From IMG/VR virus record IMGVR_UViG_3300020195_000103, positions 1-34,337 of that record: a stretch of 34,337 nucleotides of DNA, one strand, 5' to 3'. The position numbers and the translations under genes were made by a program. Source of the stretch: a virus. Positions 14,623-29,090 of this stretch are shown in pieces. The stretch's first letter is position 1; every line of letters begins with the position of its first letter. The notes below the pieces were generated by a model. The model was not told the origin of the DNA. It did not search any database and saw only the letters and a program-made list of their open reading frames with translations.

Positions 14623-14677
14623 TAGTTTCCTTCTCGCTAGAACAGCGGGACCCCCGAAGTCGTGCAAGGAGTATTTG

Positions 14678-17600
14678 ATGTCTGATGAAGAGGAGCTGTT
14701 ACCTGGTACAGAGGACCAGCCAGCATTGTTTGACATCGATCCAAGCTGGAAGGCTACCTGGCAAGGGATGCCTGACTATTCGCATCAAGACCTGATGCCG
14801 AATACAACGTTACTTGTGCACTTCAAGACCGTCGCAGATCGAGAAGCATTTTCGAGACTTATCAACCAGCAACTAACACCGCGCACAAAGTTCATCTGGC
14901 ACCCGCAGGCTACCATCAATCACGCGGCTGAGAAAGTCTACACATCCTCGAAGGTATATACTCCGCGCTATCCGCTCTACATCATCAGTAAGAGCAGGTG
15001 GGAGTCGAGGTTGACGGCGAAGTGTTTCGAGTGGATTAAGGTGCCGTACTACATTGTCATTGAGCCGCAGGAATACGAGCAATACGCCGCGGTGATCGAT
15101 CCCTCCAAAATCCTCGTCACACCCTTCAGTAACCTCGGCCAGGGCGGCATTCCAGCACGAAATTTTTGCTGGGAACACGCCATCGCAAGCGGTGCTGCGA
15201 GACACTGGATTTTTGACGACAACATTTCGGGATTCTGCCGCTTTCAGGACAACGTCAAAGTTGAAGTCGATTCAGCTATCACGATCTGCGCCATAGAAGA
15301 CTGGGTCGACCGCTACGAAAACCTTGCGCTCGCCGCACACAATTATGACTACTTTGCACCACGAAAGCAGGGCGCAAAGATCAAGCCGATCACGATGAAC
15401 ACGCGTTGCTACAGTAACCTGCTCATCGATAACGCACTCCCATACCGCTGGAGAGGGCGCTATAACGAAGATACGGACCTCTCGCTGCGTGTGCTGAAAG
15501 ACGGTCTTGACTTACGCGATGCTGGCCGTGGAGGCAACTACGCGACAGCCCTCTTCAATGCCTTTCTTGTCTACAAGACACCCACATTGACAATGAAGGG
15601 CGGGAATACCGATCACCTCTACGCTGGCGCCGAGGCTGTTACCGCAGAGTGGGGCGCGCACACTACAGCCTGTAATGTATGTACGATCGACGCGACGGCA
15701 CGGTGTGAAGACGGACGCACGATCCTCGCGAAAGACGGTCGGTGGCTGATGGCTGATTCGCTTGCCGAACAGCATCCAGACTGCACGACGATTGAACGAA
15801 AATGGGGACGCTGGCAGCACAGCGTCGACTACCGTCTTTTTCGGAACAACGCGCTCATCATTCGTCCAAATGTTGTCATCTCAGATGTATCTGATTATGA
15901 GATGACGTTGGATGCAATGCCTAATGGGTGGGGCTCGATGAGCGCGTCTCCAGCTCCAGCTCCAGCTCCAGCTCCAGCTCCAGCTCCAGCTCCAGCTCCA
16001 GCTCCAGCTCCAGCGACAACACAGCCAGTCGCAATCTCTTCAGGTCCCTCGGCCCTCGATTTTCTCTCGGATTCCCGTCCTACTGTTGAGATAGCAAAAC
16101 CCCTGTCCCCAGCCCCAGGAGCCGCGGCTCCCGCCCTGGTAGAGGAAGCCCTCGACAGCATAGAAAACTCAGCCCTAGGCCGGCCAGAGAGCCGCCCAGC
16201 GCTCTCTGGCCAGGATGTGTTACTGGCTGACGCCAAGATGTTGAAGCGAGACCTCGAGCGCCGCGGGCATCGCCTTGTCATACGCGACGGACGCTTGTTT
16301 ATCGTGAGTGATAATTCAAGCGCGTTGACCGATACAGAGCGTGCTTCGGTTAAGTCGATGAAGGAAATACTGTTGACGATGGCTGATGCTGTCGTACCGT
16401 GCTCGTGGTGCGGAAAAGTGCACGACGGTGGACCAGAACAGTGCCAGCCAACCGCCACAGTGCCATTTCAATCACTTGCAAGTTTTCTTGACACTGTTTC
16501 TACAAGCCACGTCGAAGTTACACCTGATGCTCCACCTGACCTCACCGGCATTGATCACATCATTCTCAACTTCGCCACCTCGGGCCTTAACTGGGCGCAC
16601 GGGCACAGACCCGTCGGCGTAACAATCGCAACACCTGATGGCGGGCTTGTGCGCTTCCTTCCCTTCGCGTTCAAGGGTGGAGGCAACCTTGATGAGGCCA
16701 TTATCAAGCGTTGGATGCAGGAACAGGTGCGCGGCAAGAAGATCACGAACTCAAAGACGAAGTTCGATATCCACCACGCACGTGAGTGGGGCGTAGACCT
16801 CGAGGCGCAGGGCTGCACGTTTTCAGACATACAGCATAGCGCCGCGCTTCTCGACGACCACCGCAAGCGGTTTGCGCTCGACATTCTCGCTGCGGAATAC
16901 CTGAAAGATAGTGTCGGGGTTCCGCGTGTCGACGAAACACGGCACTCGGATTATCACGCCGCCGAGGTGGCTGAACGCGAACGCTACACCGCGCTAACGG
17001 TCGGTAGGTTGCTTGATGTTTTCGCCCCGCAGCTTATCGAGCAGGATTTGCTGAGGGTCCAGGCCCTCGAGGATTCGGTCATTCCATCCGTCGTTGAAAT
17101 GGAGAAGAACGGGGCCCTCATCGACGTCGAGCTCCTCGAGCGCTACAGCCGTGAATGCACCGTCAGACACGGCGAACTGATGCGCGAGATTATCGAGGAG
17201 GCTGGGTTCGCATTCGATCATACGTCGAAAGCGTGGCAGCGTCTGTTCGAGAAGTGCAATCTAGTGCTTGGCGACAGCCATGCGGAAAGTGTCGTCGGCG
17301 TTGTTGAGCACCCGCTTATCAAGAAAGCGTTTTTCGCTGGGCAAATCGCTTCCCTAAATAGCAAGACATTCGCAGCCTACCGCAGCAAGCTTGACGGCGA
17401 CGTGCTACGGTTTGAGATTAACCAGCTTCGCGGCGACGAGGGCGGCACCGTGTCGGGCCGCTTCAGCATTGGCTACGTGCAGCAGGTTCCAAACTACGAT
17501 AATCATTCATCCGTATTCGGCGATGAGTGGTTTCCGAGGAGTCTCTTTGTTCCGCGTAGCGGGTGTTATCTCGAGGCCGACGCGGCACAGATTGAATACC

Positions 17601-18319
17601 GGCTGTTTGCCCACTTTGCCGGCAACGCCAAGGTGCTTGCTTCATACAAGGAGGACCCCGGTCTATCATTCCACAAGATGACGTGGGAGATGATGAAGCA
17701 ATACAAAGCAGATATGCTTTACGGGCATCAGAAAAATTTCAACTTCGCCCGGCAGTACGGCGCACGCTCCGTGAAGCTTGCTATCATGATGAAATTTATC
17801 ACGCAGGCAGAGGGCGATGAGATACGCGCTGCGAGCCGTTGGAACGACCCTCGGCTCAAGCAGATTCACGAGATCGAGGCGGCATACAAGCAGATGATGC
17901 CGGAGGGCGAGGAGCTACTTGACCGAGCGTCGCATCTCGCAAAACCTGAGTGCGACAAATACTGCCGGAAGAGTGATAAATTCCACAGAGAAAAGCTTCC
18001 ACACCGGGGCTATGTCAAGACGATCATCGGCCGACGCTCGCGATTCCCTACTAGCTACAAGACCTACATCGGTCTCAACCGCGTGCTCCAGGGTAGCGGT
18101 GCAGACATTATGAAGCAGAAGCTCGTCGAGCTTCACAATGCGCGCAAGGATACCGGGTTTCTTATGCGCATGACGGTCCACGATGCTGTAGGTGGCGATG
18201 CTCAGCAACCCGAGACTCTTGAGCGCGTTAAGACAATCCTGAACGAGCAATCTTTTCCACTGCGTGTACCGGTTATCTGGGAGTGCGGCGAGGGGAAGAA
18301 CTGGGCGGAGGCGAAGTGA
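14678..18319 (+). CDS. TAGT-type DNA glycosyltransferase fused to family A DNA polymerase
   Basis: The product has 1,213 residues; ATG at 14678 with AAGGAG six bases upstream. Residues 1-400 match the TET-associated glycosyltransferase (TAGT) group: YPLYIISKSRWESRLT, YIVIEPQEYEQY, LGQGGIPARNFCWE and HWIFDDNISGF (DDN). Such enzymes add sugars to hydroxymethylated pyrimidines in phage DNA. An Ala-Pro hinge (424-446) follows, then a TubC-like docking segment (about 515-565) and a Cys site (CSWCGK...EQC). Next is a 3'-5' exonuclease fold whose first motif reads LNFATSGL instead of DxE, so proofreading is probably lost. The polymerase has motif A (DAAQIEYR, about 964), motif B (KNFNFARQYG, about 1018) and motif C (VHDAV, about 1168, with Ala replacing the usual Glu). 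The start and end overlap no other gene except a GTGA overlap at the 3' end. Confidence 0.85.
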   Translation: MSDEEELLPGTEDQPALFDIDPSWKATWQGMPDYSHQDLMPNTTLLVHFKTVADREAFSRLINQQLTPRTKFIWHPQATINHAAEKVYTSSKVYTPRYPLYIISKSRWESRLTAKCFEWIKVPYYIVIEPQEYEQYAAVIDPSKILVTPFSNLGQGGIPARNFCWEHAIASGAARHWIFDDNISGFCRFQDNVKVEVDSAITICAIEDWVDRYENLALAAHNYDYFAPRKQGAKIKPITMNTRCYSNLLIDNALPYRWRGRYNEDTDLSLRVLKDGLDLRDAGRGGNYATALFNAFLVYKTPTLTMKGGNTDHLYAGAEAVTAEWGAHTTACNVCTIDATARCEDGRTILAKDGRWLMADSLAEQHPDCTTIERKWGRWQHSVDYRLFRNNALIIRPNVVISDVSDYEMTLDAMPNGWGSMSASPAPAPAPAPAPAPAPAPAPAPATTQPVAISSGPSALDFLSDSRPTVEIAKPLSPAPGAAAPALVEEALDSIENSALGRPESRPALSGQDVLLADAKMLKRDLERRGHRLVIRDGRLFIVSDNSSALTDTERASVKSMKEILLTMADAVVPCSWCGKVHDGGPEQCQPTATVPFQSLASFLDTVSTSHVEVTPDAPPDLTGIDHIILNFATSGLNWAHGHRPVGVTIATPDGGLVRFLPFAFKGGGNLDEAIIKRWMQEQVRGKKITNSKTKFDIHHAREWGVDLEAQGCTFSDIQHSAALLDDHRKRFALDILAAEYLKDSVGVPRVDETRHSDYHAAEVAERERYTALTVGRLLDVFAPQLIEQDLLRVQALEDSVIPSVVEMEKNGALIDVELLERYSRECTVRHGELMREIIEEAGFAFDHTSKAWQRLFEKCNLVLGDSHAESVVGVVEHPLIKKAFFAGQIASLNSKTFAAYRSKLDGDVLRFEINQLRGDEGGTVSGRFSIGYVQQVPNYDNHSSVFGDEWFPRSLFVPRSGCYLEADAAQIEYRLFAHFAGNAKVLASYKEDPGLSFHKMTWEMMKQYKADMLYGHQKNFNFARQYGARSVKLAIMMKFITQAEGDEIRAASRWNDPRLKQIHEIEAAYKQMMPEGEELLDRASHLAKPECDKYCRKSDKFHREKLPHRGYVKTIIGRRSRFPTSYKTYIGLNRVLQGSGADIMKQKLVELHNARKDTGFLMRMTVHDAVGGDAQQPETLERVKTILNEQSFPLRVPVIWECGEGKNWAEAK
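15948..16013 (+). repeat. (CTCCAG)11 hexanucleotide tandem repeat
   Basis: Eleven perfect CTCCAG units encode alternating Ala and Pro in the linker between the glycosyltransferase and polymerase domains. The length is a multiple of three, so unit gain or loss changes linker length without shifting the frame. Confidence 0.9.
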
Positions 18320-27304: not shown

Positions 27305-28339
27305 ATGTCACTAAACCCACTGAAAACCAGCATCGCCGTCGAGCAGGATGCGCTCTGCGCCCTGAGCGGCGAGCCACTCGCCATCGACCCGTCGCTCAAT
27401 GATCCAGATCGCATTACGCCCAAGGCGAAGGGTGGCACCTACACGCGCAAGAACACGCGGGTGGTCACGCCGTTGGCCCACATGGCGCATCACGGCATCC
27501 TGCGGACGCGCACGGAGGCGCTTGACGGCCTCAAGTCGCTCTTCGATGACCGCGTGCAGATGATGAAGCTGCTGCTGAAGGAGAACAACCAACTCCAAGC
27601 ATACAAGCGCCGCATCGACCATCAGCACCCGGAGACCGCCGCGTTCCTCGAGGCGCATCTGCAACCCATCGAGGCGCGGATCGCGCTCATCGACAAGGCG
27701 CTCACGGCAGCCATCAAGTCCTACCCCGATGCGTTCGTCAGAGCGGCGATTGCCGTCAAGGGGCTCGGCCCCATCACGGTCGCGGCGCTCACGGCCTACG
27801 TCGATCTAGAGAAGGCGCCGACGCCGTCGTCCCTCTGGCAGTATGTCGGCCTGGACCGGCCGTCGCACGAGCGCTACGAGAAGAATCCGGCGCAGCAGAC
27901 GCGGCGGGTGGCGCGTGGGCCGGCTTTCTACAGTGTCCCCTCGCGGCATGACGATGACCCGCAGGTGCCGACGGGCTGGGGCGGAAACAAGGTGCTGCGC
28001 ACGGTGTTGTGGAACAGCGCCAATGTGATGATGAAGTTGGGCGAAGGCGGCTACCGGGACGTCTACGACAGGACGAAGCTGCGCCTGAGCGTGTCGGAGA
28101 AGGTCGTGAAGACACGCAACACGGCTGGCGCGCTGGTGGAGTGCGCGTGGAAGGACACGAAGCCGTCGCATCGGCACGGCGCGGCGTTGCGGGCGGTCAT
28201 GAAGCATCTGCTGGCGGACTACTGGATGGTGGGCCGCACGATGGCGGGGCTGCGGACGACGCCGCTCTACGCCGAGGCGATGCTCGGGCACGCGCACATC
28301 ATCGCGCCGAAAGAACGAGGTTGGGCGTTCGAGGGGTAG
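27305..28339 (+). CDS. tasH: HNH plus Nop/IS110-like RNA-guided nuclease (TasH-type)
   Basis: The product has 344 residues; ATG at 27305 with GAGGA five bases upstream. Residues 1-64 look like an HNH finger: ALCALSGEPL, then DRITPKAKGGTYTRKN and AHMAHHG (Asp35/Arg36, Asn50, His59, His62, His63; the usual first His is Arg36). Residues about 75-145 are long helices. Residues 152-183 (KGLGPITVAALTAYVDL...SSLWQYVGL) and about 230-320 (GWGGNKVLRTVLWNSANVMMK, then SHRHGAALRAVMKHLLADYW) match the Nop/Transposase_20 region of IS110 transposases and the TIGR-Tas proteins. The RuvC-like DEDD domain of IS110 is absent. A 36-bp periodic array starts at the stop codon. Together these fit TasH of TIGR-Tas, which uses two short spacers to guide DNA cleavage. 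Naming is by analogy. Confidence 0.8.
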   Translation: MSLNPLKTSIAVEQDALCALSGEPLAIDPSLNDPDRITPKAKGGTYTRKNTRVVTPLAHMAHHGILRTRTEALDGLKSLFDDRVQMMKLLLKENNQLQAYKRRIDHQHPETAAFLEAHLQPIEARIALIDKALTAAIKSYPDAFVRAAIAVKGLGPITVAALTAYVDLEKAPTPSSLWQYVGLDRPSHERYEKNPAQQTRRVARGPAFYSVPSRHDDDPQVPTGWGGNKVLRTVLWNSANVMMKLGEGGYRDVYDRTKLRLSVSEKVVKTRNTAGALVECAWKDTKPSHRHGAALRAVMKHLLADYWMVGRTMAGLRTTPLYAEAMLGHAHIIAPKERGWAFEG

Positions 28340-28342
28340 CCA

Positions 28343-29027
28343 CCAGGTTCAAGAAACCCAAAAACGAAAAGCGAGCCACATCAGCCTAGAAACCCAAAGA
28401 CCTGAAGCGAGCCACGACACCTAAGAAACCCAATGTGAGCAAGCGAGCCATTGTCTAGTAGAAACCCACGGAGCCAAAGCGAGCCAAGCTTCGCAAGAAA
28501 CCCAACGAACGCAAGCGAGTCAGCAGAACGAAGAAACCTATTGATTGCAAGCGAGCCACACCCGCGGAGAAACCTATCACCCTTTAGCGGGCCATCCTTC
28601 GGTAGAAACCCAACAAGTGGAAGCGAGCCACGCCAGATAAGAAATCCAATGATGGCAAGCGAGCCCAGTCAATGCGTTGAATACGCCCAAGGTAGAGAAG
28701 CGAGTCATCAAGCAGTAATCCAGCGGCCGCTAGCGAGCCAGAAGCAGAAAGAAACCCACCAGCCAAAGCGAGCCAATGGCCTCTAGAAACCCATCACGCC
28801 CAAGCGAGCCACGCCAGATAAGAAACCCAATGAGGGGAAGCGAGTCATGAGGCAGTAGAAACCCAGTGGCCGCTAGCGAGCCAGAAGCAGAAAGAAACCC
28901 ACCAGTCCTTAGCGAGTCAGGCATCGCAAGAAACCCACGAGCGCGAAGCGAGTCAGGCGCCGATAAAAACCCACTAGGCGTAAGCGAGCCAGCGACTTAT
29001 AGAAACCCACCCCCTGGAAGCGTCTCA
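28343..29027 (+). repeat. TIGR-like guide array (36-bp period, about 19 units)
   Basis: Each unit is AGAAACCCA, 9 variable bases, AGCGAGCCA (or AGCGAGTCA), 9 variable bases. AGAAACCCA starts at 28352, 28388, 28424, 28460, 28496, 28532, 28568, 28604 and 28640. After two degenerate units (about 28681 and 28714) it resumes at 28750, 28785, 28821, 28857, 28893, 28929, 28965 and 29001. AGCGAG boxes follow each by 18 bases (for example 28370, 28803, 28983). A decayed box (GGGTAGCCA, 28334) overlaps the nuclease stop and a last one (AGCGTCTCA, 29019) closes the array. In the TIGR-Tas family, as I recall, the processed guide RNA is 36 nt with two 9-nt spacers. There is no CRISPR-like long repeat. Confidence 0.85.
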
Positions 29028-29030
29028 ACC

Positions 29031-29058
29031 TTTGGCCGATGAGGAACAACGGCCCATT
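29031..29058 (+). repeat. Cassette-flanking hairpin repeat, right copy
   Basis: TTTGGCCG (29031-29038), ten bases, ACGGCCCATT (29049-29058) begins three bases after the last array box. The stem is GGCCG/CGGCC followed by CATTTT, so it could terminate the array transcript. The fixed bases are identical to the copy at 27243-27270. Confidence 0.7.
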
Positions 29059-29090
29059 TTCGTACAATCACGTATCAGGAGCAAATGACA

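What the first reader, a model, noticed from the sequence alone, without database searches (positions are those of the whole stretch)
28622..28901. The guide array has grown by segmental duplication and then decayed
Spacer CGCCAGATA occurs at 28631 and 28812; GAAGCAGAA at 28741 and 28884; GCGGCCGCT (28723) and GTGGCCGCT (28866) differ at one base; TCAAGCAGT (28708) and TGAGGCAGT (28848) at two. These are in the same order in both places. The first block contains a degenerate unit with extra bases (28666-28698) and a box shortened by three bases (28717-28722). One spacer at 28759 is 8 rather than 9 bases. So the array seems to evolve by recombination between repeats, not only by addition of new spacers.
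Basis: seen in the sequence. Interest (0 to 1): 0.75.

Follow-up and report, generated by a model that had tools for sequence, protein, structure and literature searches.

The report
Duplicated block in phage TIGR array
A phage's string of tiny RNA guides, belonging to the recently described TIGR-Tas DNA-cutting systems, contains a stretch of guides that was copied and then drifted, which offers a way to study how such arrays change without any known machinery for adding new guides.

Summary
The array (28337-29027, 19 units of about 36 nt) is a TIGR array. It lies directly downstream of a TasH gene (27305-28339), 57% identical to SpTasH of Salicola phage CGphi29, so the system is a new member of a known family. 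Units 9, 11 and 12 recur in order as units 14, 15 and 16, with 7/53 spacer and 2/51 repeat substitutions. None of 20,000 column shuffles reached the observed collinear score. All three indel-bearing units lie in the first copy (hypergeometric P = 0.004, post hoc), which fits redundancy followed by decay. In 68 TIGR arrays (1,333 spacers) near-identical spacers within one array exceed chance: exact 10 versus 0.3-0.7, at most one mismatch 31 versus 5.6-6.4. Outside the window and one other locus the neighbouring spacers are not duplicated, so most cases are single spacers re-paired with new partners. The window has the clearest multi-unit block. Alleles L088/L089 show drifting spacers and a unit fused at a loop repeat. 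No targets were found above chance. The TIGR discovery paper calls array expansion an enigma; copy, drift and re-pairing is a testable answer, but the recombination mechanism and loss of function are inferred.

The parts
27305..28339 (+). tasH: HNH + Nop-domain protein, 344 aa
   Evidence: phmmer to PDB TasH E=2.7e-107; tblastn 51.5% to Salicola phage CGphi29; 57% in alignment; NCBIfam TIGR_Tas_endo 95.8 bits, just under cut-off 100
28337..29027 (+). TIGR array, 19 units; edge AGCGAGCCA, loop AGAAACCCA, 9-nt spacers (8 + usually A/T); starts with a truncated edge TAGCCA that contains the tasH stop codon
28622..28766 (+). duplicated block, copy 1 (units 9-12)
28803..28910 (+). duplicated block, copy 2 (units 14-16)
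28658..28698 (+). unit 10: degenerate, 41 nt, no partner in copy 2
28717..28722 (+). loop repeat of unit 11 shortened by 3 nt (or spacer A shortened to 6 nt with loop AGTAATCCA)
28759..28766 (+). 8-nt spacer B of unit 12
28767..28802 (+). unit 13, unpaired unit between the two copies
29034..29060 (+). weak terminator-like hairpin (GGCCG/CGGCC then CATTTT)
   Evidence: -9.5 kcal/mol centroid, z -0.17; not found by the consensus scan

Best explanation
A phage TIGR-TasH array underwent a segmental duplication of about 3-5 guide units, probably by unequal recombination or replication slippage between the short identical edge or loop repeats. The copies then diverged by point substitution in the spacers, and at least one whole unit was gained or lost between them. 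The first copy collected indels in three consecutive units, probably because the second copy made it redundant. More generally TIGR arrays change by copying spacers or units, drifting, and re-pairing A and B spacers. Shown: duplication, divergence, indel clustering, family-wide excess of near-duplicate spacers, unit-length differences between alleles. Inferred: recombination mechanism, redundancy as the cause of decay, and the tigRNA/TasH cutting function (by homology).
For: Collinear matches of three units in both spacers, far beyond shuffles. Copies differ by 7/53 spacer and 2/51 repeat positions, so they are not identical assembly copies. All three indel-bearing units fall in the 4 units of copy 1, P=0.004. 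Survey of 68 arrays: near-duplicate spacers 31 versus 6.4 (column shuffle) or 5.6 (8-mers of own genome), nearest-neighbour units 9 versus 0.88. Smaller duplications in L045, L065. Alleles L088/L089: tas 12.2% nt different, spacers 18/136, repeats 5/117; chimeric unit joined at a loop repeat; a unit resembling the third array of the L089 contig, P=0.00045. Whole-unit differences among L026/L027/L028.
Against: No close relative with the same array was found, so the ancestral order is unknown. Unit 13 sits between the copies without a partner, so a simple tandem duplication needs at least one further event. In the rest of the survey the neighbours of near-duplicate spacers are not duplicated apart from L045, so multi-unit segments are not the usual mode. 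A unit with a degenerate loop is kept in both L088 and L089, so a degenerate unit need not be on its way out.
Confidence: 0.82

Rival explanations
1. Independent acquisition or selection: the two blocks arose separately because they guide TasH to variants of the same targets, so spacers are similar by function and not by copying.
For: Most near-duplicate spacers in the survey recur without duplicated neighbours, which would fit repeated sampling of a shared half-site; spacers differ by a few bases as target variants might.
Against: Three consecutive units in both A and B spacers in the same order need repeated coincidence (56 of 20,000 order permutations); no acquisition genes are known in TIGR systems (PMC12045711); no targets found above control.
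Confidence: 0.1
2. Assembly artefact: a misassembled repeat region printed the block twice.
For: Metagenomic contig; short tandem repeats are hard to assemble.
Against: The copies differ by 9 substitutions and 3 indels and are separated by a unique unit; the same kinds of change appear in independent contigs.
Confidence: 0.03
3. Copy by short-tract conversion from another array of the same or a related phage, not duplication within this array.
For: L088 carries a unit resembling one in the third array of the L089 contig; L089 TGTGTTAGG/TGTGTTGGG and L065 CTTGGTGAA recur across separate arrays.
Against: Only one array was found next to the tas gene in this record; three collinear units at 140-181 nt offset are explained more simply inside the array.
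Confidence: 0.1

Closest known systems
TIGR-TasH of Salicola phage CGphi29 (SpTIGR; Faure et al. 2025, PMC12045711)
   Same: TasH 57% identical; array directly downstream; identical edge AAGCGAGCCA core; effective 8+8-nt spacers; 36-nt period
   Different: Loop AGAAACCCA versus AGACAACCA; 19 versus about 11 units; TasH here has an extra 28-30 residues after residue 196; SpTIGR shows no duplicated block
CRISPR arrays with spacer duplication (e.g. Streptococcus agalactiae CRISPR1, PMC5641575)
   Same: Spacers and repeats duplicated or deleted, attributed to slipped misalignment; degenerate repeats
   Different: One repeat type of 25-36 nt, Cas1-Cas2 acquisition; here two 9-nt repeats, no acquisition genes, copies have diverged in sequence, and spacers work in pairs
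IS110 bridge RNA transposases / box C/D snoRNPs
   Same: Nop-fold RNA-binding domain, split guides with box C/D-like motifs (weak IS110 Pfam match)
   Different: No DEDD transposase domain matched; array of many guides

Membership tests
TIGR-Tas | Tas protein with Nop domain | tested here: met
   PDB TasH E=2.7e-107 over both halves; NCBIfam TIGR_Tas_endo E=3.4e-27, 95.8 bits against cut-off 100
TIGR-Tas | TasH: N-terminal HNH nuclease | tested here: met
   Aligned HNH-region residues D35 (D or H in relatives), R36, N50, H59, H63 kept in 12 TasH proteins; activity not tested
TIGR-Tas | Two alternating 8-12-nt repeats with about 9-nt spacers, 36-nt period, next to the tas gene | tested here: met
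TIGR-Tas | Edge and loop repeats share box D and box C motifs (AG...CCA) | tested here: met
   AGCGAGCCA and AGAAACCCA; same pattern in nearly all survey loci
TIGR-Tas | 5' truncated edge at start; truncated edge and terminator at end | tested here: inconclusive
   Start TAGCCA met; end AGCGTCTCA degenerate, hairpin weak
TIGR-Tas | Processing into 36-nt tigRNAs bound by Tas | not testable with these tools
   needs RNA sequencing
TIGR-Tas | Paired-spacer cutting of DNA (spacer A on one strand, B on the other) | tested here: inconclusive
   No self or cross targets above controls; single 17/18 self match in the portal gene is probably chance
CRISPR-Cas | Single repeat type of 25-36 nt | tested here: not met
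   Two alternating 9-nt repeats

The most novel reading that the evidence does not exclude
TIGR arrays need no spacer-acquisition machinery: new guide pairs arise mainly by copying single spacers or unit blocks, letting spacers drift, and re-pairing A and B halves by recombination at the short repeats.
Probability: 0.3. Interest if true: 0.8.

Novelty: new member of a known kind. Interest (0 to 1): 0.52.

Why it matters
[quoted passage not shown] This array, the survey and the allelic pairs show copying, drift and re-pairing in TIGR arrays, which makes that question testable by comparing alleles. It also bears on whether spacers come from foreign DNA at all. I found no report of TIGR array duplication in the main texts available; supplements were not readable.

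Tried and rejected
Self-targeting: paired-spacer sites A+N0-2+rc(B) in the phages' own genomes, 588 units in 44 records: 0/1/7 hits at 0/1/2 mismatches versus 0/0-1/8-10 in three controls; rejected. Cross-targets among 1.9 Mb of phage sequence: 13 versus 8-10 in controls; rejected. The 17/18 match of unit 17 to the own portal gene: 10 exact matches in IMG/VR, none in a portal homologue, so chance. An older copy at unit 3 (12/18 with units 9 and 14): seen, significance not tested, not claimed. Shared non-consensus repeat letters beside near-duplicate spacers: no excess. Transition bias in one-mismatch pairs: 10 transitions, 11 transversions, not decisive. Close relatives of this array: none found in IMG/VR, phage records or plasmids; genome contigs gave no Tas relative with the pattern used. 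Rfam: none.

Full report
What is there. The window is a 34,337-base virus record with phage genes: portal, terminase large subunit, DNA polymerase A, sliding clamp, helicases. At 27305-28339 lies a gene for a 344-aa protein that matches solved TasH structures (E=2.7e-107) and is 57% identical to SpTasH of Salicola phage CGphi29. Its stop codon TAG is part of a truncated edge repeat TAGCCA, and the array follows at once. The array has 19 units: edge AGCGAGCCA, spacer A, loop AGAAACCCA, spacer B. The ninth base of the spacers is A or T in all but a few, so the effective spacer is probably 8 nt, as in SpTIGR. This is a TIGR array as defined by Faure et al. 2025 (PMC12045711).

The observation. 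Two further spacer pairs match (B9/B14 and B12/B16), so units 9, 11 and 12 correspond to 14, 15 and 16 in both spacers. A collinear self-alignment scores 19; no column shuffle and no independent A/B permutation of 20,000 reached it, and 56 of 20,000 unit-order permutations did. The copies differ at 7 of 53 spacer positions and 2 of 51 repeat positions, which excludes a plain assembly copy. All three indel-bearing units (10, 11, 12) are in copy 1; for 4 of 19 units the chance is 4/969 = 0.004, with the caution that this was asked after seeing it. Unit 10 has no partner in copy 2 and unit 13 lies between the copies, so at least one unit-length gain or loss came with or after the duplication.

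Is it general? IMG/VR gave 19 and then 62 Tas loci, overlapping; nearly all have arrays of the same design. In 68 arrays with 1,333 spacers, same-type spacer pairs in one array are identical over 8 nt in 10 cases (0.28 expected from column shuffles, 0.65 from 8-mers of the own genome) and differ by at most one base in 31 (6.4 and 5.6) at 17 loci. Adjacent units hold 9 of the 31 (0.88 expected; share test P=0.02). Without the window the counts are 8 and 28. But the neighbours of such pairs are as a rule not alike: only 4 of 58 neighbours match at 6 or more of 8, three of them in the window and one in L045. So the usual event is one spacer recurring with a new partner, and the window block is the clearest multi-unit case. 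L045 and L065 show one- and two-unit duplications (5 of 3,000 shuffles each), not corrected for 68 arrays.

Alleles. L088 and L089 share flanks; their tas genes differ at 12.2% of bases and 27 of 108 four-fold sites. Matched spacers differ at 18 of 136 positions, repeats at 5 of 117. In L088 the first downstream unit has a spacer A like that of L089 unit 1 and the spacer B of L089 unit 2, joined at the loop AGCAAACCA. L088 unit 2 resembles the first unit of the third array in the L089 contig (P=0.00045). L026, L027 and L028 share the last unit, differ by whole units and have related but substituted spacers. Spacers thus drift, units come and go, and halves are re-paired.

Targets. With the geometry deduced from PMC12045711 (spacer A, gap 0-2, reverse complement of B on one strand), neither own genomes nor 1.9 Mb of other phage sequence hold more matches than controls. 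What the guides aim at remains open, and so does whether drift tracks targets.

Judgement. A true, unusual multi-unit duplication in a new TIGR-TasH member. The family-wide pattern of copy, drift and re-pairing is the more interesting result and speaks to a stated open question.

Noticed in passing
window 14675-18319 (+): 1214-aa ORF joins a TET-associated glycosyltransferase domain (PF20691, residues 99-310) to DNA polymerase A (819-1212), which suggests modified phage DNA.
   Followed up: partly
window 28337-28342; L025, L076, L088, L089, L091: The tas stop codon TAG is part of the truncated first edge repeat (TAG|CCA) in several loci, so tas and array are probably one transcript.
   Followed up: partly
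L003 3912-3948 and 5041-5077: In Microcystis phage Mvi-JY20 a TasA gene (annotated only as hypothetical protein) and its TIGR array are flanked by perfect 37-nt direct repeats: a repeated promoter or a trace of module insertion.
   Followed up: no
L027 4604-5050: About 440 bp with an ORF lie between tas and the array, absent in the close relatives L026 and L028.
   Followed up: no
L076 3583-4510: Spacer B GCAATGGCA occurs three times with three different A partners; spacers are purine-rich.
   Followed up: partly
L088 and L089, third downstream unit: A unit with a degenerate loop ATACACACA is kept in both alleles despite 12% divergence of tas.
   Followed up: no
window TasH residues about 197-224: Insertion of 28-30 residues in the Nop region absent from the other 11 aligned TasH proteins.
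   Followed up: no
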